A stretch of DNA of 64,000 nt from Cohaesibacter gelatinilyticus (GTDB lineage Bacteria > Pseudomonadota > Alphaproteobacteria > Rhizobiales > Cohaesibacteraceae), in the NCBI RefSeq assembly GCF_900215605.1, contig NZ_OBEL01000004.1, forward strand, positions 62,001-126,000. The letters run 5' to 3'. Below the pieces are notes generated by a model. It was given only the letters and a program-made list of their open reading frames with translations, did not search any database and was not told where the DNA came from. This document shows, one piece after another, positions 1,657 through 63,478 of this stretch; the stretch's first letter is position 1; each line of letters starts with the position of its first letter. A program made the translations under genes and the position numbers.

Positions 1657-2748
1657 ATGGATAGACGTTCATTTCTAAAAGCCGGTCTTGCAGGTAGTGC
1701 AGCCACAGGCGCAGCTTTGGCGACACCTGCCTTGGCCAGCGGCAAAATCAAATGGAATATGGTCACTGCCTGGCCAAAGAACCTTCCTGGCCCCGGTGTT
1801 GCTGCGCAGATGCTGGCAGACCGTATTGGCATTCTCTCAGGTGGCCGCATTGAGGTGAAGCTTCATGCCGCAGGTGAGCTGGTTCCAGGCCGTGGTGTAT
1901 TCGACGCCGTCGGTGAAGGCACCGCTGAGCTTTATCACGCAGTGCCTGCTTATTGGGGTTCCAAATCCAAAGGTATTTTGCTGTTCGGTTCCCAGCCATT
2001 TGGACTTTTGGCGGATGAGCAATTTGGTTGGATGGCCCATGGTGGCGGTCAGGCACTCTATGACGAAATGTATGCGCGCTTTGACCTGAAACCTTTCCTT
2101 TGTGGTAACTCTGGTCCACAAATGGGTGGTTGGTTCCGTGAAGAAATCAAAAGCGCTGATGATCTCAAAGGTTTGAAATTCCGTACAACAGGCCTTGCAT
2201 CTGAGATGTGCTCAAAAATGGGTATGGCAGTTCAGGCCATGGGTGGCCGCGATATGTTCCAGGCTTTGCAGTCTGGTGCGCTGGATGCGGGTGAATTCAT
2301 TGGTCCATGGACTGACAGTGCTCTTGGCTTTTATCAGGTTGCGAAAAACTATTATTGGCCAGGTGTTGGCGAGCCATCTTCTGCTGAAGAATGTGGTGTG
2401 AATGCCAAGGTCTATAATGACCTGCCGGATGATCTGAAAAATGCCGTCTCCATGGCATGTGAGAGCCTTTATAACCCGGTCTGGACCGAGTATACCACCA
2501 AGCATGCTCTGGCACTGCAAAAACTGGTTGCCGAGCAAGGTGTTCAGCTGCGCGAGATGCCAGAAGATGTGATCATGGCCATGGGCAAAGCTGCAGGTGA
2601 AGTGATTGCGGAGTTGCGCGAAGACGAAGATGAGTTGGTCAAGCGCATCACCGAGAGCTTTGTTGCTTACCGTGATAGCGTTGGCGCATACAAGTCCAAG
2701 GCTGACAATGGTCAGATGAACGCACGTGCCAAGGTTCTTGGTCTTTAA
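1657..2748 (+). CDS. dctP: TRAP transporter substrate-binding protein, TakP-like
   Basis: This is the periplasmic solute receptor of a TRAP transporter, which delivers organic acids to the DctQ-DctM membrane unit. The 363-residue form starts at ATG 1657, which has GGGGAGG six bases upstream and begins MDRRSFLKAGLAG, a twin-arginine signal. An upstream in-frame start at 1534 lacks these features. MGGWFREEIKSADDLKGLKFRTTGLASEM and the GEFIGPWTDSALGFYQVA region resemble the dimeric TakP family, whose studied member binds 2-oxo acids. Binding of 2-oxo acids here is inferred. A stem-loop and then dctQM follow on the same strand. Confidence 0.9.
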   Translation: MDRRSFLKAGLAGSAATGAALATPALASGKIKWNMVTAWPKNLPGPGVAAQMLADRIGILSGGRIEVKLHAAGELVPGRGVFDAVGEGTAELYHAVPAYWGSKSKGILLFGSQPFGLLADEQFGWMAHGGGQALYDEMYARFDLKPFLCGNSGPQMGGWFREEIKSADDLKGLKFRTTGLASEMCSKMGMAVQAMGGRDMFQALQSGALDAGEFIGPWTDSALGFYQVAKNYYWPGVGEPSSAEECGVNAKVYNDLPDDLKNAVSMACESLYNPVWTEYTTKHALALQKLVAEQGVQLREMPEDVIMAMGKAAGEVIAELREDEDELVKRITESFVAYRDSVGAYKSKADNGQMNARAKVLGL

Positions 2749-2790
2749 GAACCGGGTCAACAAGAGATTGTGATCTCTTCATAAAATTTG

Positions 2791-2826
2791 CCATCCCGTA
2801 CAAGGATCAAATCTTGTGCGGGATGG
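2791..2826 (+). terminator. Intra-operon stem-loop between dctP and dctQ
   Basis: The arms 2791-2804 and 2813-2826 form a 14-bp stem with one G-T wobble and an 8-base loop, followed by only TCTTT. It lies between the binding-protein gene and its own permease genes. It therefore more likely protects the 3' end of the dctP message or causes partial termination than ends the operon. Confidence 0.7.
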
Positions 2827-2914
2827 TCTTTATCACCGGTGTGATCCAATCTAGGCTAAGATTGATAAGTCTCCCCCACATAGGCCCTTGGCCTAAGCTA
2901 GTCCGAGGGCTGTG

Positions 2915-3442
2915 ATGGAAAAATTTGCCTCATATCTCGACCAGATAAATCGCAGCGTCGGAATGACCGCGCGCTGGTTTGCGCTTGCCATGGTCCTGCT
3001 GCAATTTGGTGTGGTGCTGCTGCGCTATGTTTTTGGTTTTTCGTCCATCGCGCTGAATGAAAGTGTCTTGTATCTGCATTCAGCTCTCTTCATGCTCGGC
3101 GCTGGTTATACCCTTCTGATCGATGATCACGTGCGGGTGGATATCTTCTATTCCGGTCTTGGCCGTCCCGGAAAGGCGCGAATTGACGCTTTTGGCCATA
3201 GTCTGCTGTTGTTGCCTTCCATGGCGGCGTTGCTTTACTGGTCCTGGCCGTCGGTCCGCAACAGCTGGGCCATATGGGAGGGACCACTCTCCGTGGGTGG
3301 CATACCGGCTCTCTGGTTGATGAAAAGTCTGATCCCGGCCTTTTGTATCCTTCTCATCATTCAATCTCTGGCCTGCCTTTTGCGCCAGCTCATCACGTTA
3401 AAAGTATCTGACAATCATTCGGAAGAAGGCCCGGCAGTATGA
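2915..3442 (+). CDS. dctQ: TRAP transporter small permease subunit
   Basis: This is the small inner-membrane subunit of the TRAP system, about 175 residues with four predicted membrane helices (roughly residues 17-35, 52-70, 92-110 and 132-152). It bridges binding protein and large permease. ATG at 2915 is preferred because GAGGG lies five bases upstream; the adjacent GTG at 2912 would leave only two bases. The stop overlaps the start of the large subunit by four bases (ATGA), so the two are translationally coupled. Family assignment rests on size, topology and position between dctP and dctM. Confidence 0.85.
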   Translation: MEKFASYLDQINRSVGMTARWFALAMVLLQFGVVLLRYVFGFSSIALNESVLYLHSALFMLGAGYTLLIDDHVRVDIFYSGLGRPGKARIDAFGHSLLLLPSMAALLYWSWPSVRNSWAIWEGPLSVGGIPALWLMKSLIPAFCILLIIQSLACLLRQLITLKVSDNHSEEGPAV

Positions 3443-5100: not shown

Positions 5101-6537
5101 TCATTTTCTTTCATAAACGTCCTTGTAACGAGTAATATCGTCTTCTCCAAGATAGGTGCCGGTCTGGATCTCTATCAAGACCATCGGTATTTTCCCTGGA
5201 TTTTCGAGCCGGTGAATTTCGCCCAACGGAATATAGACAGACTGATTTTCACTCACCAATTGCTCATTTTGGCCGATCGTGACTTTGGCTGTTCCTTCGA
5301 CCACAATCCAGTGTTCTGAGCGGTGAAAATGGCTTTGCAAACTCAATGAGCCACCGGGTTTTACCACGATGCGTTTGACCTGAAATCGATCAGCTAACAC
5401 GAGTGTCTCAAACCAGCCCCAAGGACGATGGTCGACCGGAAAAGTTTCTGCTTGTCGAATGGTTTTCTGTTTCAGGGTCTTAACTGCTGTTTTAACATCT
5501 TGCGCTTTGTCCTTATTCGCAATCAGAACTGCGTCAGGCATAGCAACAGCTATTAGATTTTCGAGACCTATCCCCACTAGGGTCAATCCCTCGTTTTCCG
5601 ATCGAAGCAATGTATCTTTGCAGTCAATGGCCGTTGTATTTCCAGACAATGCTACACGGTTTTCATCTTGTTCACTTTCTCGCCAGACCGCATCCCAACC
5701 ACCAAGGTCGGACCAGCCAGAAGAGAAAGGAACAACAGATAATTTATCTGCTTTTTCCATTACGGCATAATCAATTGAAATATCTTCAGCTTCCGCCCAG
5801 GCTGCCGGATCAAGCCGCAGAAAGCCAAGGTCTGGTTTTCCGTTCTGGATGGATTGCTCTACAGGGGTCAGAAGCTGCGGGCAAGACGTGCGGAATGCCT
5901 CGATGATTGTTTTCACCTTGAACAGGAATATGCCAGCATTCCAGAGAAAATTGCCAGATGCCAGCATCTTGTCTGCCGATTGTCGATCGGGCTTTTCAAT
6001 GAATCTTGATAAGGGAATTGTACGGCTGTATTCACTGTCAATTTTTTCTGACAATTCCAGATATCCATATCCGGTTTCCGGATAAGTGGGTGTAATGCCG
6101 AACGTAACCAGATGTCCGGCATTTGCAGCTTCAATACTCACTGAGATGGCTTTGTGAAATGCAGCTACATCTGGAACGATATGATCGCTTGGTGCAATCA
6201 GCATCAGTGCTTCAGGATCATCTTTTTGCAACCAGAGGGCAGCCGCCAGAATGGCTGGTGCCGTGTTGCGGCTCTCTGGTTCAATCAGGATGGCAGATGG
6301 ATCAATCCCGATTTCGGATAATTGTTCCGTCACTATAAATCTGAAATCGGAACTTGTCAGGATTACCGGCTTGCCAAACTGCTCGCCTGATAAGCGTTGA
6401 GCAGAGGATTGAAACATCGTTTCCTGACCCATAAGCCTCGCAAATTGTTTTGGATAGCTCTTGCGGGAAAGTGGCCAGAGGCGTGTTCCGGATCCACCAC
6501 ACAAAAGGATGGGTATAATCTTGTTTTCAACCGTCAT
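5101..6537 (-). CDS. manC: Mannose-1-phosphate guanylyltransferase / mannose-6-phosphate isomerase
   Basis: This bifunctional cytoplasmic enzyme makes GDP-mannose from mannose-1-phosphate and GTP, and may also isomerise fructose-6-phosphate. It is 478 residues, the usual length for ManC/AlgA. The N-terminal nucleotidyltransferase motif GGSGTRLWPLSRKSYPKQF is at about residues 14-32. The C-terminal type II isomerase cupin runs from about 365 to 475 (PWGWFETL, then QSHFHRSEHWIVVEGTA and IPLGEIHRLENPG). It diverges from the glycosyltransferase/gmd operon and supplies its precursor: GDP-mannose feeds Gmd. No phosphomannomutase (manB) is in the window. Confidence 0.96.
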   Translation of the reverse strand: MTVENKIIPILLCGGSGTRLWPLSRKSYPKQFARLMGQETMFQSSAQRLSGEQFGKPVILTSSDFRFIVTEQLSEIGIDPSAILIEPESRNTAPAILAAALWLQKDDPEALMLIAPSDHIVPDVAAFHKAISVSIEAANAGHLVTFGITPTYPETGYGYLELSEKIDSEYSRTIPLSRFIEKPDRQSADKMLASGNFLWNAGIFLFKVKTIIEAFRTSCPQLLTPVEQSIQNGKPDLGFLRLDPAAWAEAEDISIDYAVMEKADKLSVVPFSSGWSDLGGWDAVWRESEQDENRVALSGNTTAIDCKDTLLRSENEGLTLVGIGLENLIAVAMPDAVLIANKDKAQDVKTAVKTLKQKTIRQAETFPVDHRPWGWFETLVLADRFQVKRIVVKPGGSLSLQSHFHRSEHWIVVEGTAKVTIGQNEQLVSENQSVYIPLGEIHRLENPGKIPMVLIEIQTGTYLGEDDITRYKDVYERK

Positions 6538-6800
6538 AACAATAACTCAGCATCCCATGATGTGCATATGTCGCTTTCTCACATGGCCCATCGTGATGGC
6601 CTGACTGATTGGTCGTAAGACGCTCTGGCTGATATTTCAGATCGTCGGATGAGAAATCATACGGCCACAACTTTCACCAGAAAACCCGCCCCTTTACAAG
6701 ACAGAAGACCATTTTCTCCAAATTTGTTCTCCGTTGGTGATGAGGGCGGCTTGTCAACATTGATACGCAAGACATCTTTTGCAAGCACTGAAAAGCGCTC

Positions 6801-7940
6801 ATGACTCTTAAATCCAGTGTTGGTTTTGCAAGAATAGTTGCAGCTATTCTTGCAAAACTGGTTTATATAGTCCGTCGTTTTATGTGTGCAAAATATTCGA
6901 GATCCAGCCTTTTGACCAAGACAATCATACATCTGACAAGCAATAACGATCTAAAGAGCTTCATACGTCAGACCCCGGCCGGGGATGGCATATGGGATGA
7001 CTATCAGTTTGATTTTGTCAATGGCAGGCATGACGCAGACTGGCTGATTGCGTTCGATGAACCTCATCGAGAATGCCAGACCAATCTCCCGAAATCACGC
7101 CGTATCCTGTTTCGCACCGAGCCTCAAAGTATCAAATTTTATTCTGCTGATTTTTTGAATCAGTTCGGAACGATTGTTGCGATTGATGCCAACCCATCTT
7201 TTCACGGCACCACCATTCTCTCTCAAACGGCTCTTCCATGGATGTATGGTCTTGACTTTTCAAATCCCGGCAAGGCTCTTCAATGGGATGCGTTGAGGAC
7301 AAATCGGCCCCATACTGCCAAAGGAGAGATTTCTGTCGTTTGCTCAACCAAAAATATGAACATCAATCAGAGCCGCCGTATCCGGTTTTTGGGTCTATTG
7401 AAAGAAGCATTGGGCGAACGTCTGACAATTTATGGTCGGGGTTTTGAGCAGATTGCTGACAAGAAGGAAGCGATCGATGGATTTCGCTATCATCTTGTGC
7501 TGGAAAATAATCTTCTCACTGATGGCTGGACAGAGAAGCTGGCTGATCCCATTCTGGGGGGAGTATTCCCAATCAGTGCTGGGGCACCCAATCTGAACGA
7601 CTATTTCGACCCGCAGGGATTTGCCAGTATTGATATCACCAAGCCCAAACAGGCTGTGGCTCAGGTTCTGAACATTCTCGAACAGGATCGTGCCGCTCTG
7701 GCTGGCGCGGCAATGGCTGAGAATAGAAGGCGCCTCATGTTTGAATATAACATGTTCCCGCTCTGTTGTAAGATAATTGAACAACTTCAGCAGGAACAGG
7801 AAACAAGTATCTTGCGCCCGAGTGAAATATATTCGTTTCACCCGAACATCAAACCCGCATGGAAAAAACTGCTTGCCATTCCAAAGCCTTTGCGCCCAAT
7901 GGCGCGCAAGCTCTATCTTTCTCTGACAGAGACGCAATAA
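6801..7940 (+). CDS. Family GT10 glycosyltransferase, alpha-1,3/4-fucosyltransferase-like
   Basis: The 379-residue protein has a C-terminal region matching the GT10 fucosyltransferase signature. The key elements are YHLVLENNLLTDGWTEKL (acceptor/donor motif, residues about 231-248), GGVFPISAGAPNLNDYF and FASIDI. GT10 enzymes move L-fucose from GDP-fucose to the 3- or 4-OH of GlcNAc or glucose. A hydrophobic stretch near residues 9-24 could anchor it at the inner face of the membrane. No good ribosome site precedes the ATG at 6801, and ATG 6882 is an alternative start. It abuts a GT11 gene (TAATG) and is followed by gmd and fcl, which supports GDP-fucose or a related 6-deoxy sugar as donor. The acceptor is unknown. 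Confidence 0.75.
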   Translation: MTLKSSVGFARIVAAILAKLVYIVRRFMCAKYSRSSLLTKTIIHLTSNNDLKSFIRQTPAGDGIWDDYQFDFVNGRHDADWLIAFDEPHRECQTNLPKSRRILFRTEPQSIKFYSADFLNQFGTIVAIDANPSFHGTTILSQTALPWMYGLDFSNPGKALQWDALRTNRPHTAKGEISVVCSTKNMNINQSRRIRFLGLLKEALGERLTIYGRGFEQIADKKEAIDGFRYHLVLENNLLTDGWTEKLADPILGGVFPISAGAPNLNDYFDPQGFASIDITKPKQAVAQVLNILEQDRAALAGAAMAENRRRLMFEYNMFPLCCKIIEQLQQEQETSILRPSEIYSFHPNIKPAWKKLLAIPKPLRPMARKLYLSLTETQ

Positions 7941-8845
7941 TGAGTGATTATGCAATGGCTGAGCATCCAGACTATGACAAGATCATTGTCACCAAATTGC
8001 AAGGCGGTCTGGGGAATATCCTGTTTCAATATATTGCCGGTTTGTCATTGGCGCGTAAGCGTGATTGTGCGCTTTTTTGTGCACAGGATGGGGGCGTTAT
8101 TCATCAATCGGGTTTGGAGCTCGTTGGTATCAATCCCAACTACCTTGATTTGCCGGCGGACTTGATGCGGCGCGCAAGGCGTAAAAAAGATCGCAGACTG
8201 AGCGAGCATTTCAAAAGTCGCTTGAGCCTGTGGCCCCTAAAACCGGTGTCAGAACCACATTTTCACTATTGGCCAGGCTTTGAAGATTTGCCGACAGGTA
8301 TTCTGCTGTCCGGATATTGGCAGAGTTGCCGGTATTTTGATCTTTTTAAACACGAACTGAATGACATCATCAATCTGGAAGCGATTGTGCAGACATGTGA
8401 TCCGGCTCTACTAGATACAATAACATGCAACAACACAGTTTCGGTCCATATCCGCCGTGGCGATTTCAGCAAAGATCCAACAGCGCTTTCGGTTCATGGC
8501 ATTGTGGAAGAAGACTATTACGATTGCGCTCGAGCCTTGCTGGATCGAGAGGTCCAGCCCGATCTTTATTGTGTTTTTTCCGATGCTCCCGAGACGGCAA
8601 AGGAAATGTTGGCGCATTGGGATAAGACATTATTCATTGAAGGGAACAGTCAGCAGCAAGATCTGGCCTTGATGAGCTTGTGTCACCATAACATCATTGC
8701 GAATAGCAGTTTCAGCTGGTGGGGAGCCATGCTAAACAGACATTCGAAAAAGAATGTCTGTGCACCGAAGGCCTGGTTTACCCCTCATGCTCTGCAAACC
8801 CGTTCAACAGCAGATTTGTTTCCCGGGGACTGGAACGTAATCTGA
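7940..8845 (+). CDS. Family GT11 glycosyltransferase, alpha-1,2-fucosyltransferase-like
   Basis: This 301-residue protein carries the GT11 hallmarks: GGLGNILFQYIAG near the N-terminus, the donor-binding VSVHIRRGDF in the middle, YCVFSDAPE, and NSSFSWWGAMLN near the C-terminus. GT11 enzymes add L-fucose in alpha-1,2 linkage using GDP-fucose. The start at 7940 is chosen because the ATG overlaps the stop of the preceding GT10 gene (TAATG); an in-frame ATG at 7859 lies inside that gene. Its place just before gmd and fcl makes GDP-L-fucose the likely donor, though a related GDP-6-deoxyhexose cannot be excluded. Confidence 0.87.
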   Translation: MSDYAMAEHPDYDKIIVTKLQGGLGNILFQYIAGLSLARKRDCALFCAQDGGVIHQSGLELVGINPNYLDLPADLMRRARRKKDRRLSEHFKSRLSLWPLKPVSEPHFHYWPGFEDLPTGILLSGYWQSCRYFDLFKHELNDIINLEAIVQTCDPALLDTITCNNTVSVHIRRGDFSKDPTALSVHGIVEEDYYDCARALLDREVQPDLYCVFSDAPETAKEMLAHWDKTLFIEGNSQQQDLALMSLCHHNIIANSSFSWWGAMLNRHSKKNVCAPKAWFTPHALQTRSTADLFPGDWNVI

Positions 8846-8908
8846 AACCTCAGGATCATTGGCGCAGACAGAAGAAGAAATGCGAGCCTTTGCAAAGATA
8901 GGTAAAGT

Positions 8909-10033
8909 ATGAAGAAAGCACTGATTACCGGAATCACAGGGCAGGATGGATCTTATCTCGCCGAGTTTCTGCTTGATAAAGGATATGAAGTTCACGGTAT
9001 CAAACGGCGGGCGTCCAATTTTAACACCAGTCGTATTGATCATATCTTTCAGGATCCACATATTGAGGGCTCCCGTCTGAAATTGCATTACGGTGATTTG
9101 GCAGATACATCCAATCTGACCCGGATCATGGCCGAGGTGGAGCCGGACGAGGTTTACAATCTCGGGGCCCAGTCTCATGTGGCTGTAAGTTTTGAAAGTC
9201 CGGAATATACCGCGGATGTTGACGCGATCGGTACTTTGCGTCTATTGGAAGCCATTCGTTTTTTGGGTCTTTCCGACAGGACACGCTTCTATCAGGCTTC
9301 AACATCAGAGTTATATGGTCTGGTACAGGAAACTCCGCAAAGAGAAACCACGCCTTTCCATCCCCGCTCTCCTTACGCAGTGGCAAAGCTGTATGCCTAT
9401 TGGATTACGGTTAATTATCGTGAGGCTTATGGGCTCTATGCTTGCAATGGCATTCTCTTCAATCATGAAAGTCCGCGTCGTGGTGAAACCTTTGTGACCC
9501 GCAAAATTACACGTGGGCTGTCCAATATCGCCCAAGGTCTGGATAAATGCCTCTATATGGGCAATATCGACGCCTTGCGGGATTGGGGTCATGCCAAGGA
9601 TTATGTGCGCATGCAATGGATGATGTTGCAGCAGGATAAACCAGAGGATTATGTGATTGCCACAGGGCAGCAGTTCTCGGTGCGTGAATTCATCTATTGG
9701 AGTGCCGAGGCCCTGGGTATCAAATTGCGATTTGAGGGACAGGGATTGGATGAAGTGGCTATTGTAGAAGCAATCACGTCCGATAGAGCTCCAGCCTTGA
9801 CTGTTGGGGATGTTGTCCTACGTATCGATCCACGCTATTTCCGTCCGGCGGAGGTGGAAACCTTGCTTGGAGATCCGACCAAGGCGAAGGAACAATTGAA
9901 CTGGTTGCCAGACATCACCGCTCAGGATATGTGCCGGGAAATGGTTGAAGAAGATCTGAAAACTGCCCGCCGTCATGTGCTGCTCAAGGAGCATCAGCTT
10001 GATTTGCCGGTTCCGTCCGAAATTCAAGACTAA
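8909..10033 (+). CDS. gmd: GDP-mannose 4,6-dehydratase
   Basis: This cytoplasmic short-chain dehydrogenase-fold enzyme converts GDP-D-mannose to GDP-4-keto-6-deoxy-D-mannose, the first step to GDP-fucose, GDP-colitose or GDP-perosamine. At 374 residues it is normal length. The NADP-binding [19 protein letters not shown] is at residues 4-22, followed by [11 protein letters not shown], the catalytic region STSELYG, the [10 protein letters not shown] Tyr-Lys pair and [18 protein letters not shown]. It lies downstream of the two fucosyltransferase-like genes and 15 bases before the reductase gene, clearly in one operon. Confidence 0.97.
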
Positions 10034-10048
10034 TAGGGCAGAGGATCA

Positions 10049-10984
10049 ATGAGCAAGCAACGCACTATCATGCTAACTGGCGGCCGTGGTATGGTCGGCT
10101 CCAATGTCAGGGAAAGGCTGGCCGGGTCTGATTGGAACCTGCTTGCTCCCTCGCACAGTGATCTGGATTTGCTGGATGCAGAGGCGGTGCACGACTATCT
10201 TGCTGTCCACCGCCCGGACATTATCATTCATTCTGCGGGTCTTGTTGGTGGCATTCAGGCCAATATAGCCAATCCCGTTGCATTTCTGGACAAGAACCTT
10301 GTTATTGGTCGCAATGTGATAATGGCGGCCTATGAGGCGAACATCGAGCAATTGATCAATCTGGCGTCAACCTGCGTCTATCCACGTTCAGCCTTAAATC
10401 CACTCTCTGAGGATATGATCCTTACCGGAGAACTGGAGCCAACCAATGAGGGTTATGCGATCGCCAAGCTAATGGCGTTAAGGCTTTGCCAATATGTGAA
10501 TCGTGAACGGGGCAAGGCATGCTTCAAAACCATTATTCCTTGTAATCTTTATGGTAGGCATGACAAATTTGATCCTGCGCGCTCGCATCTGATACCTGCC
10601 ATCATCCATAAGGTGCATCATGCCAAGCTGAACGGTAGCAAAGTGGTTGACATCTGGGGTGATGGTACCGCCAGACGTGAGTTCATGTATGCAGGAGATT
10701 TGGCAGACTTCTTGTACAGGGCTCTGAACAATTTCGATACTTTGCCAGATCTGACGAATGTCGGACTCGGGCATGATTTTTCGATAAACGATTATTATGC
10801 TGCTGTTGCCGAAGTGGTTGGTTGGACAGGGGAGTTCAGTCATGATCTTTCCAAACCTGTTGGCATGAAACAGAAACTGGCGTCCGATGCCAAACAGGCT
10901 GCATGGGGTTGGGCTCCAAAAACCAGCCTTAAAGATGGCATTCAAAAAACCTATGATTTCTATTTGGAGACACTGAACAAATGA
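10049..10984 (+). CDS. fcl: GDP-L-fucose synthase-like epimerase/reductase
   Basis: This 311-residue SDR enzyme resembles Fcl/WcaG, which epimerises and reduces GDP-4-keto-6-deoxymannose to GDP-L-fucose. GGRGMVGSNVRERL at the N-terminus binds NADP. The catalytic Ser and Cys are in LASTCVYP, and Tyr and Lys in YAIAK. The His in ARSHLIPA matches the conserved catalytic His, and EFMYAGDLA follows. Because ColC (GDP-colitose synthase) is a close relative of Fcl and the next gene is ColD-like, this could instead finish GDP-colitose; sequence reading alone does not separate the two. GAGG lies six bases before the ATG, and the stop overlaps the next start by four bases. Confidence 0.88.
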   Translation: MSKQRTIMLTGGRGMVGSNVRERLAGSDWNLLAPSHSDLDLLDAEAVHDYLAVHRPDIIIHSAGLVGGIQANIANPVAFLDKNLVIGRNVIMAAYEANIEQLINLASTCVYPRSALNPLSEDMILTGELEPTNEGYAIAKLMALRLCQYVNRERGKACFKTIIPCNLYGRHDKFDPARSHLIPAIIHKVHHAKLNGSKVVDIWGDGTARREFMYAGDLADFLYRALNNFDTLPDLTNVGLGHDFSINDYYAAVAEVVGWTGEFSHDLSKPVGMKQKLASDAKQAAWGWAPKTSLKDGIQKTYDFYLETLNK

Positions 10985-19480: not shown

Positions 19481-19518
19481 GGGTCCGGCGGACAGACCCA
19501 ATTCCCTCCGCCGAACCC
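19481..19518 (-). terminator. Intra-operon stem-loop after the binding-protein gene
   Basis: On the minus strand, 19518-19507 pairs with 19492-19481 as a 12-bp, GC-rich stem with one G-U wobble and a 14-base loop. It begins 18 bases after the binding-protein stop and ends before the permease start. No T-run follows, so 3' stabilisation or partial termination is more likely than full termination. Confidence 0.65.
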
Positions 19519-19535: not shown

Positions 19536-20531
19536 CTACTTCACTTCAGACAGATAGCGCTCGCCAAAGCCTTTCTGGGCTTTTTCCATGGCAGCATAAT
19601 CAACTGCCTTTGCACGGGCGTAATCGCTGGCTGGCAGGAATTTGGCGGCAACCTCTTTTGGTAGCTCGACAGGGCGAGCGGGCTGGAGATAGGCATTGGT
19701 CCAGATGGCCTGTCCCTCATCAGAGAGAATGAAATCCAGTACCTTCTTGCCTAGTTTTGGATTTGGACCATTGTTGACCAAGCTCATGACATAAGGCACA
19801 CGCACGGACCCTTCACATGGCAGCACGAATTCAAACTTGCCGTCTTCTTCATATTTGCCGCGGTAGGCGTTGAAGTCATAATCGAACAGGATTGGAATTT
19901 CGCCGGACACAACGCGTGCATAAGAAGTCTGTTTTGGCACGATCGGATCATTCTTGGCCAGATCCTTGAAATATTTGATGGCAGGATCAAAGTTGGTAAG
20001 ATCGCCACCAAAGGCCATATTGGCGGCAACGGCGCCGGCATAGCCAACAAAGGCGGAAGATGGATCCAGATAGCCAACCATGCCTTTGTAGGCTGGTTTC
20101 TTCAAATCGGCAAAGCATTGTGGCACAGGGGCATCGCCAAGGGCTTCGACATTCACGAAGAAGCCCAGTGTGCCATAATGGATGGCGAACCATTTGCCAT
20201 CGGCGTCTTTCAGGCCTTCCGGGATTTCATCGAAGCCTTTTGGCTTGTAAGCGGTTGCTACCCCTTGATTGCCGGCCTTGATGCCGGTCGTTACGCCATA
20301 ATAGGCGACATCGGCAACCGGATTATCTTTTTCCGCTAGCAGCTGACTAAGAGTCTGGCCCGAATTCTTGTTGTCATGTGGCATCTGCACATCGATTTTC
20401 TCATCAATGGCTTTCAACATGGAAGCCCAATCAGCCCATTGTGGGGGACAATTATAACAAATGGCATCTTCTGCCTGGGTTGGAGCTACCAGAGCGGTTG
20501 TCATCAGGACAGCGGTCAGGATATGTTTCAC
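19536..20531 (-). CDS. ABC transporter periplasmic substrate-binding protein, family 1 (AfuA/PotD-like)
   Basis: This 331-residue secreted receptor has a Sec signal ending near residue 20 (TALVAPTQA-ED). The mature protein opens with a close cysteine pair, AICYNCPPQWADW, which is unusual for the family and could form a disulfide. The body (VADVAYYGVTTGIKAG, WFAIHYGTLGFFVN, YARVVSGEIPILFDYDFNAY) resembles receptors for iron(III), polyamines, thiamine or organophosphates. A phosphoesterase in the operon and a LacI regulator upstream point to an organic phosphate or sugar phosphate ligand. This is inference; iron is less likely with a LacI regulator. Confidence 0.85.
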   Translation of the reverse strand: MKHILTAVLMTTALVAPTQAEDAICYNCPPQWADWASMLKAIDEKIDVQMPHDNKNSGQTLSQLLAEKDNPVADVAYYGVTTGIKAGNQGVATAYKPKGFDEIPEGLKDADGKWFAIHYGTLGFFVNVEALGDAPVPQCFADLKKPAYKGMVGYLDPSSAFVGYAGAVAANMAFGGDLTNFDPAIKYFKDLAKNDPIVPKQTSYARVVSGEIPILFDYDFNAYRGKYEEDGKFEFVLPCEGSVRVPYVMSLVNNGPNPKLGKKVLDFILSDEGQAIWTNAYLQPARPVELPKEVAAKFLPASDYARAKAVDYAAMEKAQKGFGERYLSEVK

Positions 20532-24977: not shown

Positions 24978-25859
24978 ATGAAAAAGTTTATCGGTATGGC
25001 ACTGGCAACCAGCCTGATGCTTGGCACCTCCGTTTCCGCCAAGGCTGAGGAAACACTGGCGCTGGTCATCTCCACCTTGAACAATCCGTTCTTCGTGACC
25101 CTCAAGGAAGGCGCTGAAAAGAAAGCGGCTGAGAAGGGTTATAAATTGTTGGTTCTGGATAGCCAGAATGATCCTGCGAAGGAACTGGCCAACGTTGAGG
25201 ATGTGCTGAACAAGAAGATCTCTCTTATGATGATCAATCCGACAGATTCTGACGCTGTGCGCAGTGCCATCAAGGCAGCGAACCGCAAGAATGTGCCGGT
25301 TGTGACCCTCGATCGTGGTGCCAATGGTGGTAAGGTTGCCTCCCATATTGCTTCTGATAATGTTCAGGGCGGCGAGATGGCAGGTAAACTCATCGTTGAT
25401 ATGCTGAAAGGTAAGGGTAAGGTCGTTGAACTACAGGGCGTGCCTGGCACTTCTGCTGCTCGTGATCGCGGCGAAGGTTTCAACAAGGCCGTTGCCATGG
25501 CATCTGGTATTGAAGTGGTTGCAAGCCAGGCCGCTGACTTTGACCGCACCAAAGGCCTGAATGTGATGGAAAACATCCTGCAGGCTCAGCCAGAGATCAA
25601 TGCGGTCTTTGCTCATAATGATGAGATGGCGCTGGGTGCAATCAAGGCGATTGAAGCTGCCAAACGTGACATTTTGGTCGTCGGTTTCGATGGCACCGAT
25701 GATGCCGTTTCTGCCGTGAATGAAGGTACTCTTCTGGCAACGGTTGCCCAGCAGGCTGCGAAAATCGGTTCCATGGGTGTGGATGTGGCAGAACAAATTC
25801 TCAAAGGTGAGAAAGTTGCCGACTATACTCCGGTAGCCTTGAAGGTTATCAAGAAATAA
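24978..25859 (+). CDS. rbsB: Ribose-binding periplasmic protein
   Basis: This 293-residue receptor has a Sec signal ending near residue 23 ([10 protein letters not shown]). The mature N-terminus [21 protein letters not shown], then ILDRGANGG-like [35 protein letters not shown] and [15 protein letters not shown] match RbsB, including residues that contact ribose (N in STLNNPFF, R in DRGANG, R in ARDRG). GGGAG lies before the ATG. A stem-loop after the stop separates it from rbsR. Confidence 0.96.
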
Positions 25860-25906: not shown

Positions 25907-25932
25907 GATCCGGTGCCGATAAGCGCCGGATC
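25907..25932 (+). terminator. Intra-operon stem-loop after rbsB
   Basis: A 10-bp stem (25907-25916 with 25923-25932, one G-T wobble) closes a 6-base loop in the gap between rbsB and rbsR. No T-run follows. It could reduce read-through into the regulator and kinase or protect the rbsB message. Confidence 0.6.
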
Positions 25933-29805: not shown

Positions 29806-30795
29806 ATGAAGAAATATCATATCAATAGAAGACGCTTTCTTAAAACCGGGGCGACCTTGGGCGCTGTTTCATTGCTTCCAGCGCCGGTGGTGTTGGCACA
29901 ATCGCCTGTTAAGGTTGCTGGAATTCACTCTTCTCCGGTAGAGAATGCTTGGAATTCTCGCTTGCATGTTGCAATGCTGGAAGCGGCAAAACGTGGCGAA
30001 ATCGATTATGTCTTTTCCGAAGGGATTGCCGGAACCGATTATTCCCGTGCGATGCGCGAATATGCAGAGCAAGGTGTCGAGGTGATTGTCGGGGAGGCCT
30101 ATGCGGTCGAACGTGAAGCAAGGCAGGTGGCGGGTGATTATCCCGATACGACCTTCCTCATGGGCTCAAGTGGCAAACCTCATGGTGATAATTTTGCAAC
30201 CTTTGGAACCTGGAATCATGAAGCGGCCTATCTGTGTGGCATGCTGGCAGGAAAGATGAGCAAGTCCGGAATTTTCGGTTCGGTCGGGGCTATTCCCATT
30301 CCTGAAGTGAACATGCTCATCCATGGTTTTCGTCAGGGTGTGAATGCGGTGCGTCCGGATGCAAAACATCTGATCAATTTCATTGGAACGTTTTTTGATC
30401 CTCCCAAGGCACGGGAGGCCGGTTTGGCACAGATTGATTCCGGTGCGGATATTCTATTTGGGGAGCGTATTGGTACTGCCGATGCTGCCAAGGAGCGTGG
30501 CATCAAGGCCATTGGATCGCTCACTGATTATTCTGCTCGCTATCCGGAAACAGTCTTTTCCAATGCCATCTGGAATTTCGGGGCCATTCTTGCAGCGGCT
30601 CTGGCGGATCGCAAGGCGGGCAAATCCAATGGTCAGGAATATACCCGTTTTGGCCTCATGAAAGAGGGCGGCAATGATATCAGCTATGTGAAATCCATGG
30701 TGCCTGCCGATGCCATCGAGCCGATGGAAAAGGTAAGAGCCGCCATCAAGGCAGGTGAGTTTGAGGTGAAGATCGATTTCAGCGAACCAACTTGA
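29806..30795 (+). CDS. BMP-family (PnrA-like) substrate-binding protein with a Tat signal
   Basis: This 329-residue receptor of the basic membrane protein/PnrA family binds purine nucleosides or related bases. ATG 29806 has CGGAGG upstream and opens with MKKYHINRRRFLKTGATLG, a twin-arginine signal rather than the lipobox usual in this family. The body has VEVIVGEAYAVEREARQVA, GMLAGKMSKSGIFGSVGAIP and GADILFGERIGTADAAKERG. The fold is secure; the ligand is inferred to be a pyrimidine or purine from the deaminase next door. Confidence 0.87.
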   Translation: MKKYHINRRRFLKTGATLGAVSLLPAPVVLAQSPVKVAGIHSSPVENAWNSRLHVAMLEAAKRGEIDYVFSEGIAGTDYSRAMREYAEQGVEVIVGEAYAVEREARQVAGDYPDTTFLMGSSGKPHGDNFATFGTWNHEAAYLCGMLAGKMSKSGIFGSVGAIPIPEVNMLIHGFRQGVNAVRPDAKHLINFIGTFFDPPKAREAGLAQIDSGADILFGERIGTADAAKERGIKAIGSLTDYSARYPETVFSNAIWNFGAILAAALADRKAGKSNGQEYTRFGLMKEGGNDISYVKSMVPADAIEPMEKVRAAIKAGEFEVKIDFSEPT

Positions 30796-30811: not shown

Positions 30812-30840
30812 GGTTGGCGTGAGACAGTCCCACGCCAACC
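30812..30840 (+). terminator. Intra-operon stem-loop after the BMP gene
   Basis: A perfect 10-bp GC-rich stem (30812-30821 with 30831-30840) closes a 9-base loop 16 bases after the BMP stop and 24 bases before the ATPase start. Only CTTTG follows. It probably sets the binding-protein message above the permease genes. Confidence 0.65.
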
Positions 30841-37453: not shown

Positions 37454-38500
37454 ATGAAAAAGGTATTCAAGGGACTGGCCGTTAGTCTTGTTGCACTTTG
37501 TGCCGCAACAAGCGCCATGGCAGACGGCAAAGTTCTGAAGTTTGGCCATGACAACAAAGCTGATCCGTTTGAGAATCCGGCCCATGCTTGTACTGCTGTC
37601 TTTTCCAATATTGTCGGTGCAGACACGAATGGTAAGGTCAAGGTTGAAGTGTTTCCATCCAACCAGCTGGGCTCAGCAGCCGAGCATGTCCAAATGGTTC
37701 GAGATGGTGTCATTCAGGCCACGTTGACCTCAACCGGTGCCTTGGCCAGCTACTATCCGCGCATCGATGTACTTAACTTGCCATTTGCATTTGGCAGCAA
37801 TGCCGCCACCTATAATGTGTTTGATGGTGAATTTGGCAAGACACTGGCCGACGATATTGAAGCAAGCCTTGGTGATGTCGTGGTGCTTGGTTTCCCAGAT
37901 ACTGGTGGCTTCTTTGCCGTTACCAACTCCAAGCGCAAGATTGCTGATCTGAAAGACTTTGACGGTGTGCGCATTCGTACGATGACCCTGCCATCTCATC
38001 AGGCCATCATCAACGCTTTGGGGGCTGAAGCTTATCCGCTGAGCTGGGGTGAAGTTTATTCCGGTCTTCAGACTGGTGTGATCGATGGGCAGATGAACCC
38101 GGTTCCGATTATCTCCTTCGCCAAATTTTCTGAAGTACAGAAATATATGACGCTGACCAACCACCTGTTCTCGCCTTACACCTTCATGGTCAATCGTGCT
38201 TTCTATGAGGGCTTGAGCGATCAGCAACAGGCAACCTTGCGCTATGCGGCACAAAGCTGTGTTGCTGCGAGCCGTGGTTTGTCTCGTATCATCGAAGCGT
38301 CTGATCGTGGTTTGGCTGGTTTGATGGACAAGATTGAAGTGACTGCATTGTCAGATGATCAGCGCAAAGCCATGGCCGGTGCAACACAGCCTGCCTTTGA
38401 GAAACACATCAAGGAAAATCAGGATGCAAAAGCTGGCGAACTGCTGACGCTGTTCAAATCTGAAGTCAAAAAGGCCAATGACGCGAGCTATATCGACTAG
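37454..38500 (+). CDS. dctP: TRAP transporter substrate-binding protein
   Basis: This 348-residue receptor has a Sec signal ending near residue 23 (CAATSAMADG). DctP features are VFPSNQLGSAAEHVQMVRDG, LKDFDGVRIRTMTLPSHQAI with the carboxylate-binding Arg, GEVYSGLQTGVIDGQMNPVPII and NHLFSPYTFMVNRAFYEGLS. A carboxylate ligand is expected from the Arg. The two enzyme genes downstream suggest a compound that M81 and D-amino-acid-type PLP enzymes can process. Confidence 0.92.
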   Translation: MKKVFKGLAVSLVALCAATSAMADGKVLKFGHDNKADPFENPAHACTAVFSNIVGADTNGKVKVEVFPSNQLGSAAEHVQMVRDGVIQATLTSTGALASYYPRIDVLNLPFAFGSNAATYNVFDGEFGKTLADDIEASLGDVVVLGFPDTGGFFAVTNSKRKIADLKDFDGVRIRTMTLPSHQAIINALGAEAYPLSWGEVYSGLQTGVIDGQMNPVPIISFAKFSEVQKYMTLTNHLFSPYTFMVNRAFYEGLSDQQQATLRYAAQSCVAASRGLSRIIEASDRGLAGLMDKIEVTALSDDQRKAMAGATQPAFEKHIKENQDAKAGELLTLFKSEVKKANDASYID

Positions 38501-38509: not shown

Positions 38510-38539
38510 GGGCAGGTCATTGTACTGAATGACCTGCCC
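38510..38539 (+). terminator. Stem-loop directly after dctP
   Basis: A perfect 12-bp stem (GGGCAGGTCATT at 38510-38521 with 38528-38539) closes a 6-base loop, nine bases after the dctP stop. CCTGAG follows rather than a T-run. It may protect the dctP message or allow partial read-through into the enzyme genes. Confidence 0.7.
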
Positions 38540-44535: not shown

Positions 44536-44553
44536 GGATTGACTCCGATTAAG

Positions 44554-45890: not shown

Positions 45891-45910
45891 TCATCTGGTG
45901 TCAAGGGAGC

Positions 45911-46750: not shown

Positions 46751-46799
46751 CGAACGTAAAATATTGTCGAAAAAACCAGTTTCAGAATGGGAGGAAACC

Positions 46800-47756
46800 A
46801 TGAAACTTGCAAACTTTGTAAAAGCCACCGCCATTGCGGCCATGGCGTCAATCACAGCCCTGGCAAGCCCTGTTGTCGCTGCCGGTTGGGCTCCTGATGA
46901 GCCGATTGTGCTACGCGTCGGGTTTGGTGCAGGCGGCGAAACCGACACGATGGGGCGTGTGTTGGCTGCGACAATCGAAAAACAGACCGGTTGGGATGTG
47001 GTTGTAGAAAACCGTCCAGGCGGCGGCGGTGTCGCCATGTTAAGCGGTCTGGTTTCGGAAAAACCAAATGGTCTTGTTCTTGGTATGGCCGTGAATATTC
47101 CGCCGCTCATGATGCTGAATGAACGGCCGGACACTCTACCCTTCAAAATCGATAGCTTTGATTATATCGGCACCATTGCACTGGCTGAAACATCGCTGAT
47201 TTCCAGCTCAAAGGCCAAGTTCAACTCTGTTGAGGAGTTGGTTGCCTATGCAAAGGAAAAAGGCTCTGCCTCCATTGCTTGGGATGCTCCGGATCTGAAA
47301 GCTGTGATGCAAAAAGTAGGGGCAGATGAGGGTGTGAAGTTCCGCATGGTGAAAGCCGAAAGCGGAGCGGAAATGATTAAGCTCTTGTTGGGCGGGCAAG
47401 TCGATGCGGCATTTGGCACGGGCGCTCACCTGCCATTTGTCGAGGATGGACAGGTCAAGATTCTCTCCAGTCTTTCAGACAAGCGCTTGAGTTATGCGCC
47501 TGAAATCCCGACCCTGATCGAAGCAGGTCACAATTTTTACATCGCACCTTACTTCTATGTGGCCGCACCGGGAAACCTTCCTGCTGATGCCAAGGAAGCT
47601 CTAGCAAAGGCGATGGAGAATGCGGTCGCTCATGAAGACGTAAAGACTGTTGTCCAGAATACCGTGCGTGCGCCTGCAAATAATCTGGGACCGGACGGCA
47701 CACGCAAGATGATGCATGATGCCTTTGGTCCAATCGGCAAGCTTTTTGCCAAATAA
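46800..47756 (+). CDS. tctC: Tripartite tricarboxylate transporter binding protein (Bug/TctC family)
   Basis: This 318-residue periplasmic receptor has a Sec signal ending near residue 28 (ALASPVVAAG). Bug-family motifs include LRVGFGAGGETDTMGRVLA and VVENRPGGGGVAMLSGLV. ATG 46800 has GGGAGG upstream and defines a proper signal; an in-frame start at 46692 lies inside the usp gene. Bug receptors bind carboxylates such as citrate, aromatic acids or nicotinate. Next to kynurenine genes, an anthranilate-like or tryptophan-derived acid is a reasonable guess. Confidence 0.92.
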   Translation: MKLANFVKATAIAAMASITALASPVVAAGWAPDEPIVLRVGFGAGGETDTMGRVLAATIEKQTGWDVVVENRPGGGGVAMLSGLVSEKPNGLVLGMAVNIPPLMMLNERPDTLPFKIDSFDYIGTIALAETSLISSSKAKFNSVEELVAYAKEKGSASIAWDAPDLKAVMQKVGADEGVKFRMVKAESGAEMIKLLLGGQVDAAFGTGAHLPFVEDGQVKILSSLSDKRLSYAPEIPTLIEAGHNFYIAPYFYVAAPGNLPADAKEALAKAMENAVAHEDVKTVVQNTVRAPANNLGPDGTRKMMHDAFGPIGKLFAK

Positions 47757-47764
47757 TTGACAAC

Positions 47765-47793
47765 GCCTTAGCCAGATCTTTGCTGGCTAGGGC
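47765..47793 (+). terminator. Intra-operon stem-loop after tctC
   Basis: An 11-bp stem (47765-47775 with 47783-47793, one wobble) closes a 7-base loop, then ATTTTGCG. It begins nine bases after the tctC stop and ends 20 bases before tctB. It probably sets receptor above membrane subunits. Confidence 0.65.
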
Positions 47794-47812
47794 ATTTTGC
47801 GTTGGGGGACCC

Positions 47813-48235: not shown

Positions 48236-48247
48236 GGAAAGTTAGAG

Positions 48248-49765: not shown

Positions 49766-50896
<1,131 letters not shown>

Positions 50897-50903
50897 TCAA
50901 TGC

Positions 50904-50935
50904 TATAAGGCGCAAGTGGGGGCTTGCGCCTTATA
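50904..50935 (+). terminator. Intra-operon stem-loop after dctP
   Basis: A perfect 13-bp stem (50904-50916 with 50923-50935) closes a 6-base G-rich loop, seven bases after the dctP stop, then TTTTGTAATTTT. This is the most terminator-like hairpin found inside an operon here, yet dctQM follow on the same strand only 38 bases later. Confidence 0.75.
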
Positions 50936-50973
50936 TTTTGTAATTTTCCCTTTCTGGGCAAAGTGAGGTCTGG

Positions 50974-51519
50974 ATGATCAGGCGATTTTCGACATTTTGG
51001 GCCGAGCTGGAACTCAAATGCGCTGCATTGCTGGCTGCTGGTATTACTCTTCTCATTCTATTGAATGTGATCACCCGCACCATTGGCATTGCCCTGTTCT
51101 GGGTGGATGAACTGGCAATCTATCTCATGATCTGGATGACCTTTTTTGCGGCATCTGCTGCTATTCATCACAAGAATTCAGTAGCGGTGACACTTCTGGC
51201 GGATGCCTTGGATTACAAGCAGCGCCGTCTATTGATGAGATGTGTTGATGTTATTCTGTTCGCCATGGCTCTGGGTATGATCTATTTCTGCTGGCGCTGG
51301 TTTCTGCCTTTGGATTTGCTCCAGGCAGGATTGGACATCGAAGTATTTCAGGGTGAAACCTTCAATTTCATCTATTCCGAGATCACCAATACTCTGCCGA
51401 TCCGAAAGGTCTGGGTCTGGCTCATCATGTGGTTCTTTGCCTTTGGCCTGTTTCTGCACAGCCTGAACAATCTGCTACATCCTGCCGATCAACATGCTGA
51501 CCAATCTGGAACATCCTGA
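50974..51519 (+). CDS. dctQ: TRAP transporter small permease subunit
   Basis: This 181-residue membrane subunit has four hydrophobic segments and the DctQ core VDELAIYLMIWMTFFAASAAIHHKNSVAV. Its stop and the start of dctM share one base (TGATG at 51517-51521), so translation is coupled. The DctQ family diverges fast; context secures the call. Confidence 0.88.
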   Translation: MIRRFSTFWAELELKCAALLAAGITLLILLNVITRTIGIALFWVDELAIYLMIWMTFFAASAAIHHKNSVAVTLLADALDYKQRRLLMRCVDVILFAMALGMIYFCWRWFLPLDLLQAGLDIEVFQGETFNFIYSEITNTLPIRKVWVWLIMWFFAFGLFLHSLNNLLHPADQHADQSGTS

Positions 51520-62204: not shown

Positions 62205-62244
62205 TGCCGACCGGTAACAAGAACACGGCACAAGGGAGGAACAT

Positions 62245-63375
62245 ATGAATTTACTAAAACTCACCACAGCTCTGGTAGGCCTGTCCTTCATTGCAGGGGC
62301 CGCTCAGGCGCAAAATTATGATGATCCAAAGGAGTTTGCCAAACAAAAGGCCATGCTATCGGCCAAGGCCAATGGTCCGGCTGATAAGCCTTGGGAGCAG
62401 TATTTTGGCGATGTCACGGCTGATACGGCCAAATACAAGAAGGATGGCAAGGCCACCATCTGTTTTTCCAATGCAGGCGTGAACAATCCATGGCGCGTGG
62501 TTGGTTGGAACACCATGCAGGCCGAGGTCGATCTGCATAAGGATGAGATCGCGGACTTCGTCGTGACTGATGCAGAAGGGTCCGACGACAAGCAGATTGC
62601 CGATATCGATGATCTGTTGGCTGGCGGTAAATGTGACGTTTTGATCGTCTCACCCAACACGACCGCTGCTTTGACACCGGCGGTTGAAAAGGCCTGCGAG
62701 AAAGTGCCGGTCGTAGTCTTCGACCGTGGTGTGAACACCACTTGCCCGGTCAGCTTTATCAAGCCAGTCGGTGGTTATGGTTTCGGTATCCAGTCCGGTG
62801 ACTATATCGCTCAGAATGCCCCAAAAGGTGGCTCGGTTCTGATGCTGCGTATCCTGCCCGGCGTGGATGTTCTGGAGACCCGTTATTCCGCTGCCAAACG
62901 CGTCATGGAAGAAGCTGGCATGAAGATTGTCGGTGCCGAATTCACCGATGGTGATCGTGCCAAGACCAAATCCATCGTCGAGGACTATCTGCAACGCGAA
63001 GGCAAACTGGATGCGGTCTGGATGGATGCGGGGGCGACTTCTGTTGCCGCAATCGAAGCCTTTGAAGATATGGGCATGGATGTTCCGATTGTCACTGGTG
63101 AAGATCAGCAGGATTTCTTGCAAAAGTGGCAGGCACTGGGTCTGAAAACCATCGCTCCGACCTATCCAACCTACCAGTGGCGCACGCCAATCATCGCATC
63201 CCTGAAGATCCTGAAAGGCGAAGCCATTCCGGGACCTGAATGGAACTTGCCGCAACCTGCTATCACAGCAGACAATCTGGCCGATTTTGTCAATCCAGAT
63301 ATGCCACCTCTGCATTATGCAGCCTGCGGCTGCGAAGGCATGCCGGATTATCCAAAGCGCTGGGGTGGCAAATAA
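62245..63375 (+). CDS. Sugar ABC transporter substrate-binding protein
   Basis: This 376-residue receptor has a signal ending near residue 22 (AGAAQAQNYDD). It belongs to the ribose-binding-like peripla_BP_4 group (ICFSNAGVNNPWRVVGWNTM, VVVFDRGVNTTCPVSFIKPVGGYGFG, VWMDAGATSVAAIEAFEDMG). It is about 80 residues longer than RbsB. The extra lies in an N-terminal stretch before the first strand and a C-terminal tail with close cysteines (YAACGCEGMPDYPKRWGG). The ligand is presumably the sugar used by the flanking epimerases. Confidence 0.9.
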   Translation: MNLLKLTTALVGLSFIAGAAQAQNYDDPKEFAKQKAMLSAKANGPADKPWEQYFGDVTADTAKYKKDGKATICFSNAGVNNPWRVVGWNTMQAEVDLHKDEIADFVVTDAEGSDDKQIADIDDLLAGGKCDVLIVSPNTTAALTPAVEKACEKVPVVVFDRGVNTTCPVSFIKPVGGYGFGIQSGDYIAQNAPKGGSVLMLRILPGVDVLETRYSAAKRVMEEAGMKIVGAEFTDGDRAKTKSIVEDYLQREGKLDAVWMDAGATSVAAIEAFEDMGMDVPIVTGEDQQDFLQKWQALGLKTIAPTYPTYQWRTPIIASLKILKGEAIPGPEWNLPQPAITADNLADFVNPDMPPLHYAACGCEGMPDYPKRWGGK

Positions 63376-63450
63376 GCCCCGGATTTCGCTTTAAAACCCA
63401 AGCCCTGACTTCGACGCCATAACCCCACCACCCATGTTGTCGAGGTCAAA

Positions 63451-63478
63451 CCGGGCGGATCATGTTTGGTCCGTCCGG
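63451..63478 (+). terminator. Stem-loop after the sugar receptor gene
   Basis: A 9-bp GC-rich stem (63451-63459 with 63470-63478, one wobble) closes a 10-base loop, 75 bases after the receptor stop and 42 before the next gene. There is no T-run. It is weaker and further away than the other receptor-linked hairpins in the window. Confidence 0.45.

What the first reader, a model, noticed from the sequence alone, without database searches (positions are those of the whole stretch)
2748..63478. All eight receptor genes are followed by a stable stem-loop without a long T-run
Eight substrate-binding-protein genes of four unrelated kinds (three DctP, TctC, RbsB, BMP, an AfuA/PotD-like receptor and a sugar receptor) are each followed by a stem-loop, usually within about 50 bases. 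They lie at 2791-2826, 19481-19518 (minus strand), 25907-25932, 30812-30840, 38510-38539, 47765-47793, 50904-50935 and 63451-63478. Seven sit inside operons before genes that need the same transcript. Known cases such as malE-malF show 3' hairpins raising receptor mRNA above permease mRNA. Eight of eight in one window, with different stem sequences, points to convergent selection for receptor excess.
Basis: partly seen in the sequence, partly recalled or inferred. Interest (0 to 1): 0.7.

Follow-up and report, generated by a model that had tools for sequence, protein, structure and literature searches.

The report
Hairpins that follow nutrient-receptor genes
In this marine bacterium the genes for nutrient-catching receptor proteins are usually followed by a tight RNA hairpin, which probably keeps the receptor's message more abundant than the message for its membrane pump; the trick is known from other bacteria but here it covers several unrelated transporter classes.

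Summary
All eight receptor genes found in the window have a hairpin of 10-14 uninterrupted base pairs soon after the stop codon, at the stated coordinates. It is neither chance nor local. In 1.09 Mb of the genome (window included), strong hairpins follow 48 of 71 receptor genes in same-strand gaps of 25-200 nt, against 44 of 234 other genes; outside the window 42/64 vs 43/218, p=1.6e-11. In 80 DctP orthologs a hairpin (E<=-15) lies within 60 nt of the receptor stop in 72, against 6/78 and 23/78 after the next two genes, and pairing is kept while the stem sequence changes. Best explanation: a 3' barrier, in some cases also a leaky terminator, that raises receptor mRNA over translocator mRNA, as for malE and puf. 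No RNA data were available, so the effect is inferred. Published work already shows this for ABC importers in E. coli and Clostridia; new here are TRAP, TTT and BMP receptors and the breadth in one genome. A phylum-wide DctP sample shows it only in about half, with a weak contrast to the next gene.

The parts
1621..2748 (+). DctP receptor gene (TRAP), first of DctP-Q-M
   Evidence: PF03480 E 1.1e-39; start from gene caller
2791..2826 (+). hairpin after DctP1, 14-bp perfect stem, before DctQ
   Evidence: -24.7 kcal/mol; gap z -6.6
19536..20531 (-). SBP_bac_6 receptor gene (ABC)
   Evidence: PF13343 E 3.2e-39
19481..19518 (-). hairpin after SBP6, before two permease genes and the ATPase gene
   Evidence: -28.9; z -3.5
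24978..25859 (+). RbsB-like receptor gene, last of RbsD-A-C-B
   Evidence: PF13407 E 8.1e-63
25907..25932 (+). hairpin after RbsB, before a LacI gene and a PfkB kinase gene
   Evidence: -17.8; z only -1.2
29806..30795 (+). BMP (PnrA-like) receptor gene
   Evidence: PF02608 E 7.4e-35
30812..30840 (+). hairpin after BMP, before ATPase and two permease genes
   Evidence: -18.1; z -2.7; hairpins also in BMP homologs
37454..38500 (+). DctP receptor gene, last of DctQ-M-P
   Evidence: PF03480 E 4.8e-68
38510..38539 (+). hairpin after DctP2, 12-bp perfect stem, before an M81 peptidase-family gene
   Evidence: -22.3; z -4.6
46800..47756 (+). TctC receptor gene (TTT), first of TctC-B-A
   Evidence: PF03401 E 3.3e-26
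47765..47793 (+). hairpin after TctC, before TctB
   Evidence: -19.0; z -2.4
49931..50896 (+). DctP receptor gene, first of DctP-Q-M
   Evidence: PF03480 E 2.9e-53
50904..50935 (+). hairpin after DctP3, 14-bp perfect stem, before DctQ
   Evidence: -21.8; z -3.4; conserved in orthologs
62245..63375 (+). Peripla_BP_4 sugar receptor gene, last of ATPase-permease-permease-receptor
   Evidence: PF13407 E 3.1e-33
63451..63478 (+). hairpin after the sugar receptor, 12-bp perfect stem
   Evidence: -21.7; not scored by z
63521..64000 (+). start of a xylose-isomerase-like TIM-barrel gene downstream of the eighth hairpin; runs past the window end
   Evidence: L252:3522-4577

Best explanation
Each hairpin is a 3' boundary element of the receptor's mRNA segment. 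The operon is transcribed through it; the permease or ATPase part is cut and degraded (RNase E first, then 3'-5' exonucleases); the exonucleases stop at the stem; the receptor segment therefore outlives the rest, and receptor exceeds translocator. Where the stem is followed by a few Us, some polymerases may also stop there, with the same outcome. Shown here: the stems, their receptor preference, their positional conservation and compensatory change. Inferred: RNase cutting, exonuclease blocking, leaky termination, receptor excess.
For: Same-strand gaps of 25-200 nt: strong hairpin (E<=-14 and z<=-2) after 48/71 receptors, 44/234 other genes, 0/4 LacI. By gap length: 51-80 nt 12/17 vs 5/39; 81-120 nt 15/20 vs 13/61; 121-200 nt 20/27 vs 25/77. 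Stricter stem criterion, all gene ends: 57/103 receptors, 118/957 others, 0/13 LacI. DctP with E<=-15 within 120 nt: 36/37. Receptors followed by a membrane or ATPase gene (judged by hydropathy and motif): 58/70 on a loose measure on which other genes score 372/957, so many of these are not operon ends. DctP3 orthologs: E<=-15 within 60 nt in 72/80 after DctP, 6/78 after the next ORF, 23/78 after the one after that, 11/80 and 12/78 in coding controls; z<=-2 in 53/80, 1/78, 6/78, 2/80, 3/78. Covariation on 45 of the 80: score 0.255 vs shuffled 0.160 (0/500 reach it) and 0.079-0.142 when slid; 34 cells changed on both sides vs 13-26 when slid. BMP homologs: E<=-15 within 60 nt in 27/29, against 19, 10, 11 and 6 of 29 in control windows. 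Published analogues: malE and four further E. coli ABC systems, puf in Rhodobacter.
Against: No transcript data. 44/234 non-receptor gaps also carry such hairpins, and 23 of 71 receptor gaps do not pass. In gaps of 25-50 nt the enrichment is not significant (1/7 vs 1/57). Exported non-receptor proteins are intermediate (11/22 vs 72/212 non-exported, loose measure), so part of the signal may follow export or high expression. In more distant or GC-rich relatives the contrast is weaker: 23 distant DctP homologs have E<=-18 within 120 nt in 21 but their next-gene control has it in 8/23; in a phylum-wide DctP sample 16/30 reach E<=-15 against 13/27 after the next gene, and z<=-2 in 9/30 against 4/27. 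One of 13 LacI genes reaches E<=-15 on the loose measure (C2:681245). Thresholds were chosen by me after seeing the window.
Confidence: 0.66

Rival explanations
1. Internal leaky intrinsic terminators: RNA polymerase stops at the hairpin in a fraction of rounds, so fewer transcripts reach the translocator genes. The outcome, receptor excess, is the same.
For: Wu et al. (PMC9045158) measured 20.7-96.1% termination over all four types of SBP-downstream stem-loops, the U-rich type above 90% and six others below 50%. 15 of 80 same-strand receptor hairpins here have 5 or more T in the next 8 nt, and T is 35-41% at positions 2-6. Several DctP3 orthologs end in CCCTTTT with a paired A-tract.
Against: Four of eight in the window have 1-2 T in 8. 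T content at receptor hairpins is only slightly above that at other hairpins of the genome (23-34% at the other two sets). A strong hairpin is rarer within 60 nt of the third TRAP-operon gene, where an operon end is likely, than after the first (23/78 vs 72/80).
Confidence: 0.2
2. General 3' stabiliser of any highly expressed gene. Receptors are enriched only because they are highly expressed; there is no tuning of receptor:translocator ratio as such.
For: 44/234 non-receptor gaps also carry strong hairpins; by N-terminal sequence (recalled, not searched) they include ribosomal protein S16, a cold-shock protein and malate dehydrogenase. Exported non-receptors are intermediate.
Against: Inference only: a hairpin at the receptor/translocator junction would give differential expression whatever the original cause. 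Expression level, measured or codon-based, was not tested.
Confidence: 0.1
3. Chance or composition: GC-rich gaps fold stably by accident, and receptor gaps are merely longer.
For: E alone is inflated in GC-rich relatives (BMP control window +150..210 nt: 19/29 at E<=-15; next-gene control 13/27).
Against: Dinucleotide shuffles, gap-length bins, LacI and coding controls, and covariation speak against it for the set.
Confidence: 0.02
4. Dispersed palindromic repeats (REP-like) or a protein-binding operator inserted after these genes.
For: malE-malF contains REP elements (recalled).
Against: 0 similar pairs among 83 receptor hairpins at E<=0.01, plus strand; no Rfam family in the window at gathering score.
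Confidence: 0.02

Closest known systems
malE-malF intercistronic structure and other E. coli differential-decay operons (Dar and Sorek 2018, PMC5927463)
   Same: Stable hairpin without U-tract at the 3' border of the stabilised gene; the substrate-binding gene is invariably the stabilised one in five ABC systems, whatever its place in the operon; structure often inside the next gene's coding sequence (17/26), as in several BMP homologs here.
   Different: ABC importers in E. coli with measured decay; here TRAP, TTT and BMP as well, in an alphaproteobacterium, without RNA data.
Internal terminators after SBP genes in cellulolytic Clostridia (Wu et al. 2022, PMC9045158)
   Same: Stem-loops downstream of SBP genes, long GC stems, low U.
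   Different: Clostridia and ABC importers; termination measured. Here other transporter classes are included and termination is untested.
pufBA-pufLMX intercistronic hairpin of Rhodobacter capsulatus
   Same: Alphaproteobacterial stem-loop that stabilises part of an operon mRNA and sets stoichiometry (seen only as described or cited in PMC5927463 and PMC6238624).
   Different: Photosynthesis operon, not transport.
Selective RNA processing and stabilization operons, SLOFE predictions (PMC8219983)
   Same: Genome-wide prediction of stoichiometry from 3' stem-loop energy; includes ABC transporter families (passages).
   Different: Clostridium and Bacillus; the word TRAP does not occur in its main text.

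Membership tests
Intercistronic 3' protective hairpin (malE/puf type) | Stable hairpin soon after the stop codon of the gene needed in excess | tested here: met
   8/8 in the window; 48/71 vs 44/234; 72/80 orthologs
Intercistronic 3' protective hairpin (malE/puf type) | No uridine tract that would make it an intrinsic terminator | tested here: inconclusive
   Longest T-run 1-4, but 4 of 8 have 4-5 T in 8; 15/80 in the genome set have 5 or more T in 8
Intercistronic 3' protective hairpin (malE/puf type) | Upstream mRNA segment more stable than downstream; 3' ends map to the hairpin | not testable with these tools
   no RNA data available
Intercistronic 3' protective hairpin (malE/puf type) | Structure conserved between relatives | tested here: met
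   position 72/80; covariation score above 500/500 shuffles and all slid versions. The count of pairs changed on both sides (9/10) is not discriminating, as slid versions give 6-10
Low-U internal terminators after SBP genes (Wu et al.) | Stem-loop of -38.3 to -10.1 kcal/mol downstream of the SBP | tested here: met
   -17.8 to -28.9
Low-U internal terminators after SBP genes (Wu et al.) | Fewer than 5 U in the 3' tail (their Type II) | tested here: inconclusive
   6 of 8 have fewer than 5 T in the first 8 nt, two have 5
Low-U internal terminators after SBP genes (Wu et al.) | Measured partial termination | not testable with these tools
   none
Canonical Rho-independent terminator | GC stem directly followed by a run of about 5-8 T | tested here: not met
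   0 of 8 in the window; single cases elsewhere in the genome do have such runs, e.g. C9:59966
REP/BIME-type dispersed palindromes | Shared repeat sequence | tested here: not met
   0 similar pairs among 83 hairpins

The most novel reading that the evidence does not exclude
In some proteobacterial lineages a 3' hairpin is a near-obligatory part of any receptor gene, whatever the transporter class (ABC, TRAP, TTT, BMP) and whatever the gene's place in the operon. It is held at a near-fixed distance from the stop while its sequence is continually replaced, so receptor:translocator ratio is set by a freely evolving physical barrier that could be read from genome sequence alone.
Probability: 0.45. 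Interest if true: 0.58.

Novelty: new member of a known kind. Interest (0 to 1): 0.42.

Why it matters
Receptors must outnumber their membrane pumps, yet both often sit in one operon. This genome offers about 100 parallel cases in unrelated transporter classes, where the junction hairpin is predictable from sequence and testable with one RNA-seq and 3'-end experiment. If right, genomes alone would tell which gene of a transport operon is made in excess, also for TRAP and TTT systems, for which the searches listed no such report.

Tried and rejected
Composition or gap-length artefact: rejected for the set by shuffles, gap bins, LacI and coding controls. Repeat family: rejected. Known Rfam element: none at gathering score. 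Operon-end terminators: rejected as the general reading, because 58 of 70 receptors followed by a membrane or ATPase gene still have the hairpin (other genes 372/957 on that measure) and hairpins are rarer after the third TRAP gene. A simple T-run test to separate terminators from stabilisers gave no clear split. RNAalifold on the whole MAFFT alignment returned no consensus (0 pairs), and my first named structure was one column out of register; the register used was taken from its slide control, so the structure was fitted to this alignment. RbsB relatives: 3 of 199 genomes, our own included, at E<=1e-80, too few to use. TRAP junction hairpins in print: searches gave capped listings in which no title points to it (none opened), one search gave no paper; a 1997 dctPQM paper that I recall as relevant is not held. 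Codon-adaptation control not done. Rows dropped or changed: of 1086 called genes 13 near stretch edges or duplicated; 4 regulators moved from receptor to LacI by eye, one of which reached E<=-15 (energies); one sensor-like hit (C8:1059) dropped from then on. Receptor families searched were PF03480, PF00496, PF00497, PF01547, PF13407 and PF13458 plus the window's Bmp and TctC (SBP6 came in through PF01547); receptors of other families remain among 'other', which makes the contrast conservative. Export, membrane and ATPase labels are my own heuristics, not Pfam.
Full report
WHAT IS THERE. Pfam gives three DctP, one SBP_bac_6, two Peripla_BP_4, one Bmp and one TctC receptor; no ninth appears among the 60 ORFs scanned. 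Five hairpins precede the cognate translocator genes; three follow the last gene of the transporter and precede same-strand regulatory or catabolic genes. The eighth is followed, across the window end, by a xylose-isomerase-like gene and a Gfo/Idh/MocA gene.

WHERE IT COMES FROM. The window is G000:C4:62001-126000 of a 5.2 Mb genome with 38 DctP matches in 37 genes. A genome classed as same family (G019) carries a locus identical to a record titled Cohaesibacteraceae bacterium NORP264 (all 3902 31-mers shared), so the organism is probably a member of Cohaesibacteraceae (Hyphomicrobiales). This is an inference.

IS IT MORE THAN CHANCE. I fetched 87 stretches around receptor-family hits and 13 random stretches, called 1086 genes with a codon model trained on this DNA and the window, and took for each the most stable single hairpin within 120 nt of the stop. 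DctP genes have E<=-15 in 36 of 37. That measure is loose: 219 of 573 other genes with a same-strand neighbour pass it too. So I restricted it to the actual gap and to 60 dinucleotide shuffles. In gaps of 25-200 nt, E<=-14 with z<=-2 holds for 48/71 receptors, 44/234 others and 0/4 LacI regulators; outside the window 42/64 vs 43/218, p=1.6e-11. By gap length: 12/17 vs 5/39 (51-80 nt), 15/20 vs 13/61 (81-120), 20/27 vs 25/77 (121-200); 1/7 vs 1/57 for 25-50 is not significant. With a strict stem rule (at least 9 bp, loop up to 10, at most 2 unpaired, E<=-14) it is 57/103 receptors, 118/957 others and 0/13 LacI; on E<=-15 alone one of those 13 LacI genes passes (C2:681245). LacI regulators are a useful control because they carry the same periplasmic-binding fold without export; most were recognised by an N-terminal motif or by eye. 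Exported non-receptor genes are intermediate: 11/22 against 72/212 for non-exported and 58/71 for receptors, on the looser measure and with a home-made signal-peptide rule. The 83 receptor hairpins share no sequence similarity at E<=0.01.

CONSERVATION. 80 orthologs of DctP3 (63-78% identity, best 80 of 152; by record title mostly Rhodobacteraceae-type, also Hyphomicrobiales, other Alphaproteobacteria and Gammaproteobacteria) have E<=-15 within 120 nt in 79 of 80; in 7 the best stem starts 60 nt or more out, two of these still in the gap. Within 60 nt the numbers are 72/80 after DctP, 6/78 after the next ORF (DctQ-sized), 23/78 after the one after that (DctM-sized; neither checked by Pfam), 11/80 and 12/78 in coding controls; for z<=-2, 53/80, 1/78, 6/78, 2/80 and 3/78. 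Among 73 stems there are 54 distinct 8-nt cores. On an alignment of 45 of them (43 distinct) the covariation score is 0.255 against 0.160 shuffled (0 of 500 reach it) and 0.079-0.142 when slid; 34 cells change on both sides against 13-26 when slid. The number of pairs changed on both sides (9 of 10) is no argument, as slid versions give 6-10. The register was corrected, and RNAalifold alone found no consensus. 23 more distant DctP homologs have E<=-18 within 120 nt in 21, but their next-gene control has it in 8 of 23. BMP homologs (29, same order) have E<=-15 within 60 nt of the stop in 27, z<=-2 in 11; the control windows have 19, 10, 11 and 6 at E<=-15 and 4, 1, 1 and 1 at z<=-2. Where the next ORF overlaps the BMP stop, the hairpin often lies inside its first codons (L235, L238, L239, L243, L245, L249, L251), which argues against mere gap filling; these were not tested one by one.

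LIMITS. A phylum-wide DctP sample has E<=-18 in 16/30 (coding control 1/30, next-gene control 7/27), E<=-15 in 16/30 (7/30 and 13/27) and z<=-2 in 9/30 (1/30 and 4/27); several loci with short gaps lack it. So it is lineage- or operon-dependent, and in that sample the contrast with the next gene is weak. Non-receptor genes also use such hairpins (44/234), and 23 of 71 receptor gaps do not pass.

MECHANISM. Tails are T-poor but not T-free. The hairpin is seen at the internal junction more than after the TRAP operon's third gene, which fits a decay barrier better than an ordinary terminator. I give 0.66 to the 3' barrier (with leaky termination at some), 0.20 to leaky termination as the main cause. 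Both predict receptor excess; sequence cannot separate them.

PRIOR ART. Dar and Sorek (PMC5927463; passages, one section) report that in E. coli malEFG and four more ABC systems the stabilised gene is invariably the substrate-binding one, and that protective hairpins lack U-tracts. Wu et al. (PMC9045158; abstract and three sections) report stem-loops after SBP genes in Clostridia and at least 15 in E. coli as low-U internal terminators. The puf hairpin of Rhodobacter is described or cited in PMC5927463 and PMC6238624 (passages). Searches aimed at TRAP junction hairpins listed nothing of the kind (listings only), in a library that lacks most subscription papers. The kind is therefore known; the breadth over transporter classes, the high frequency in one genome and the turnover of stems are the additions.

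Noticed in passing
window 27961-28004: A perfect AT-rich 18-bp stem with an 8-nt loop follows the PfkB gene in a gap of about 400 nt before the amidohydrolase gene; terminator or operator unknown.
   Followed up: no
window 40198-40236: Of the 17 non-receptor gaps scored in the window the only one with a strong hairpin follows the M81/MlrC-type gene (-18.2 kcal/mol, z -3.5).
   Followed up: no
L235, L238, L239, L243, L245, L249, L251: In BMP loci whose next ORF overlaps the receptor stop, the hairpin sits inside the first codons of that ORF, so one stretch appears to serve protein and structure.
   Followed up: partly
window 5101-12150: A cluster with a GDP-mannose pyrophosphorylase-like gene, GDP-mannose dehydratase, an epimerase, two fucosyltransferase-like genes (families 10 and 11) and an aminotransferase-family gene.
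   Followed up: no
window 41651-52778: 3-hydroxyanthranilate dioxygenase, aldehyde dehydrogenase and kynureninase genes lie next to the TctCBA and DctPQM operons; these transporters may carry tryptophan or kynurenine breakdown products.
   Followed up: no
L105, L104, L044 (G000 stretches): Non-receptor genes with strong 3' hairpins include, by eye from their N-termini, ribosomal protein S16, malate dehydrogenase, a succinyl-CoA synthetase subunit and a cold-shock protein, which hints at a general high-expression rule.
   Followed up: no
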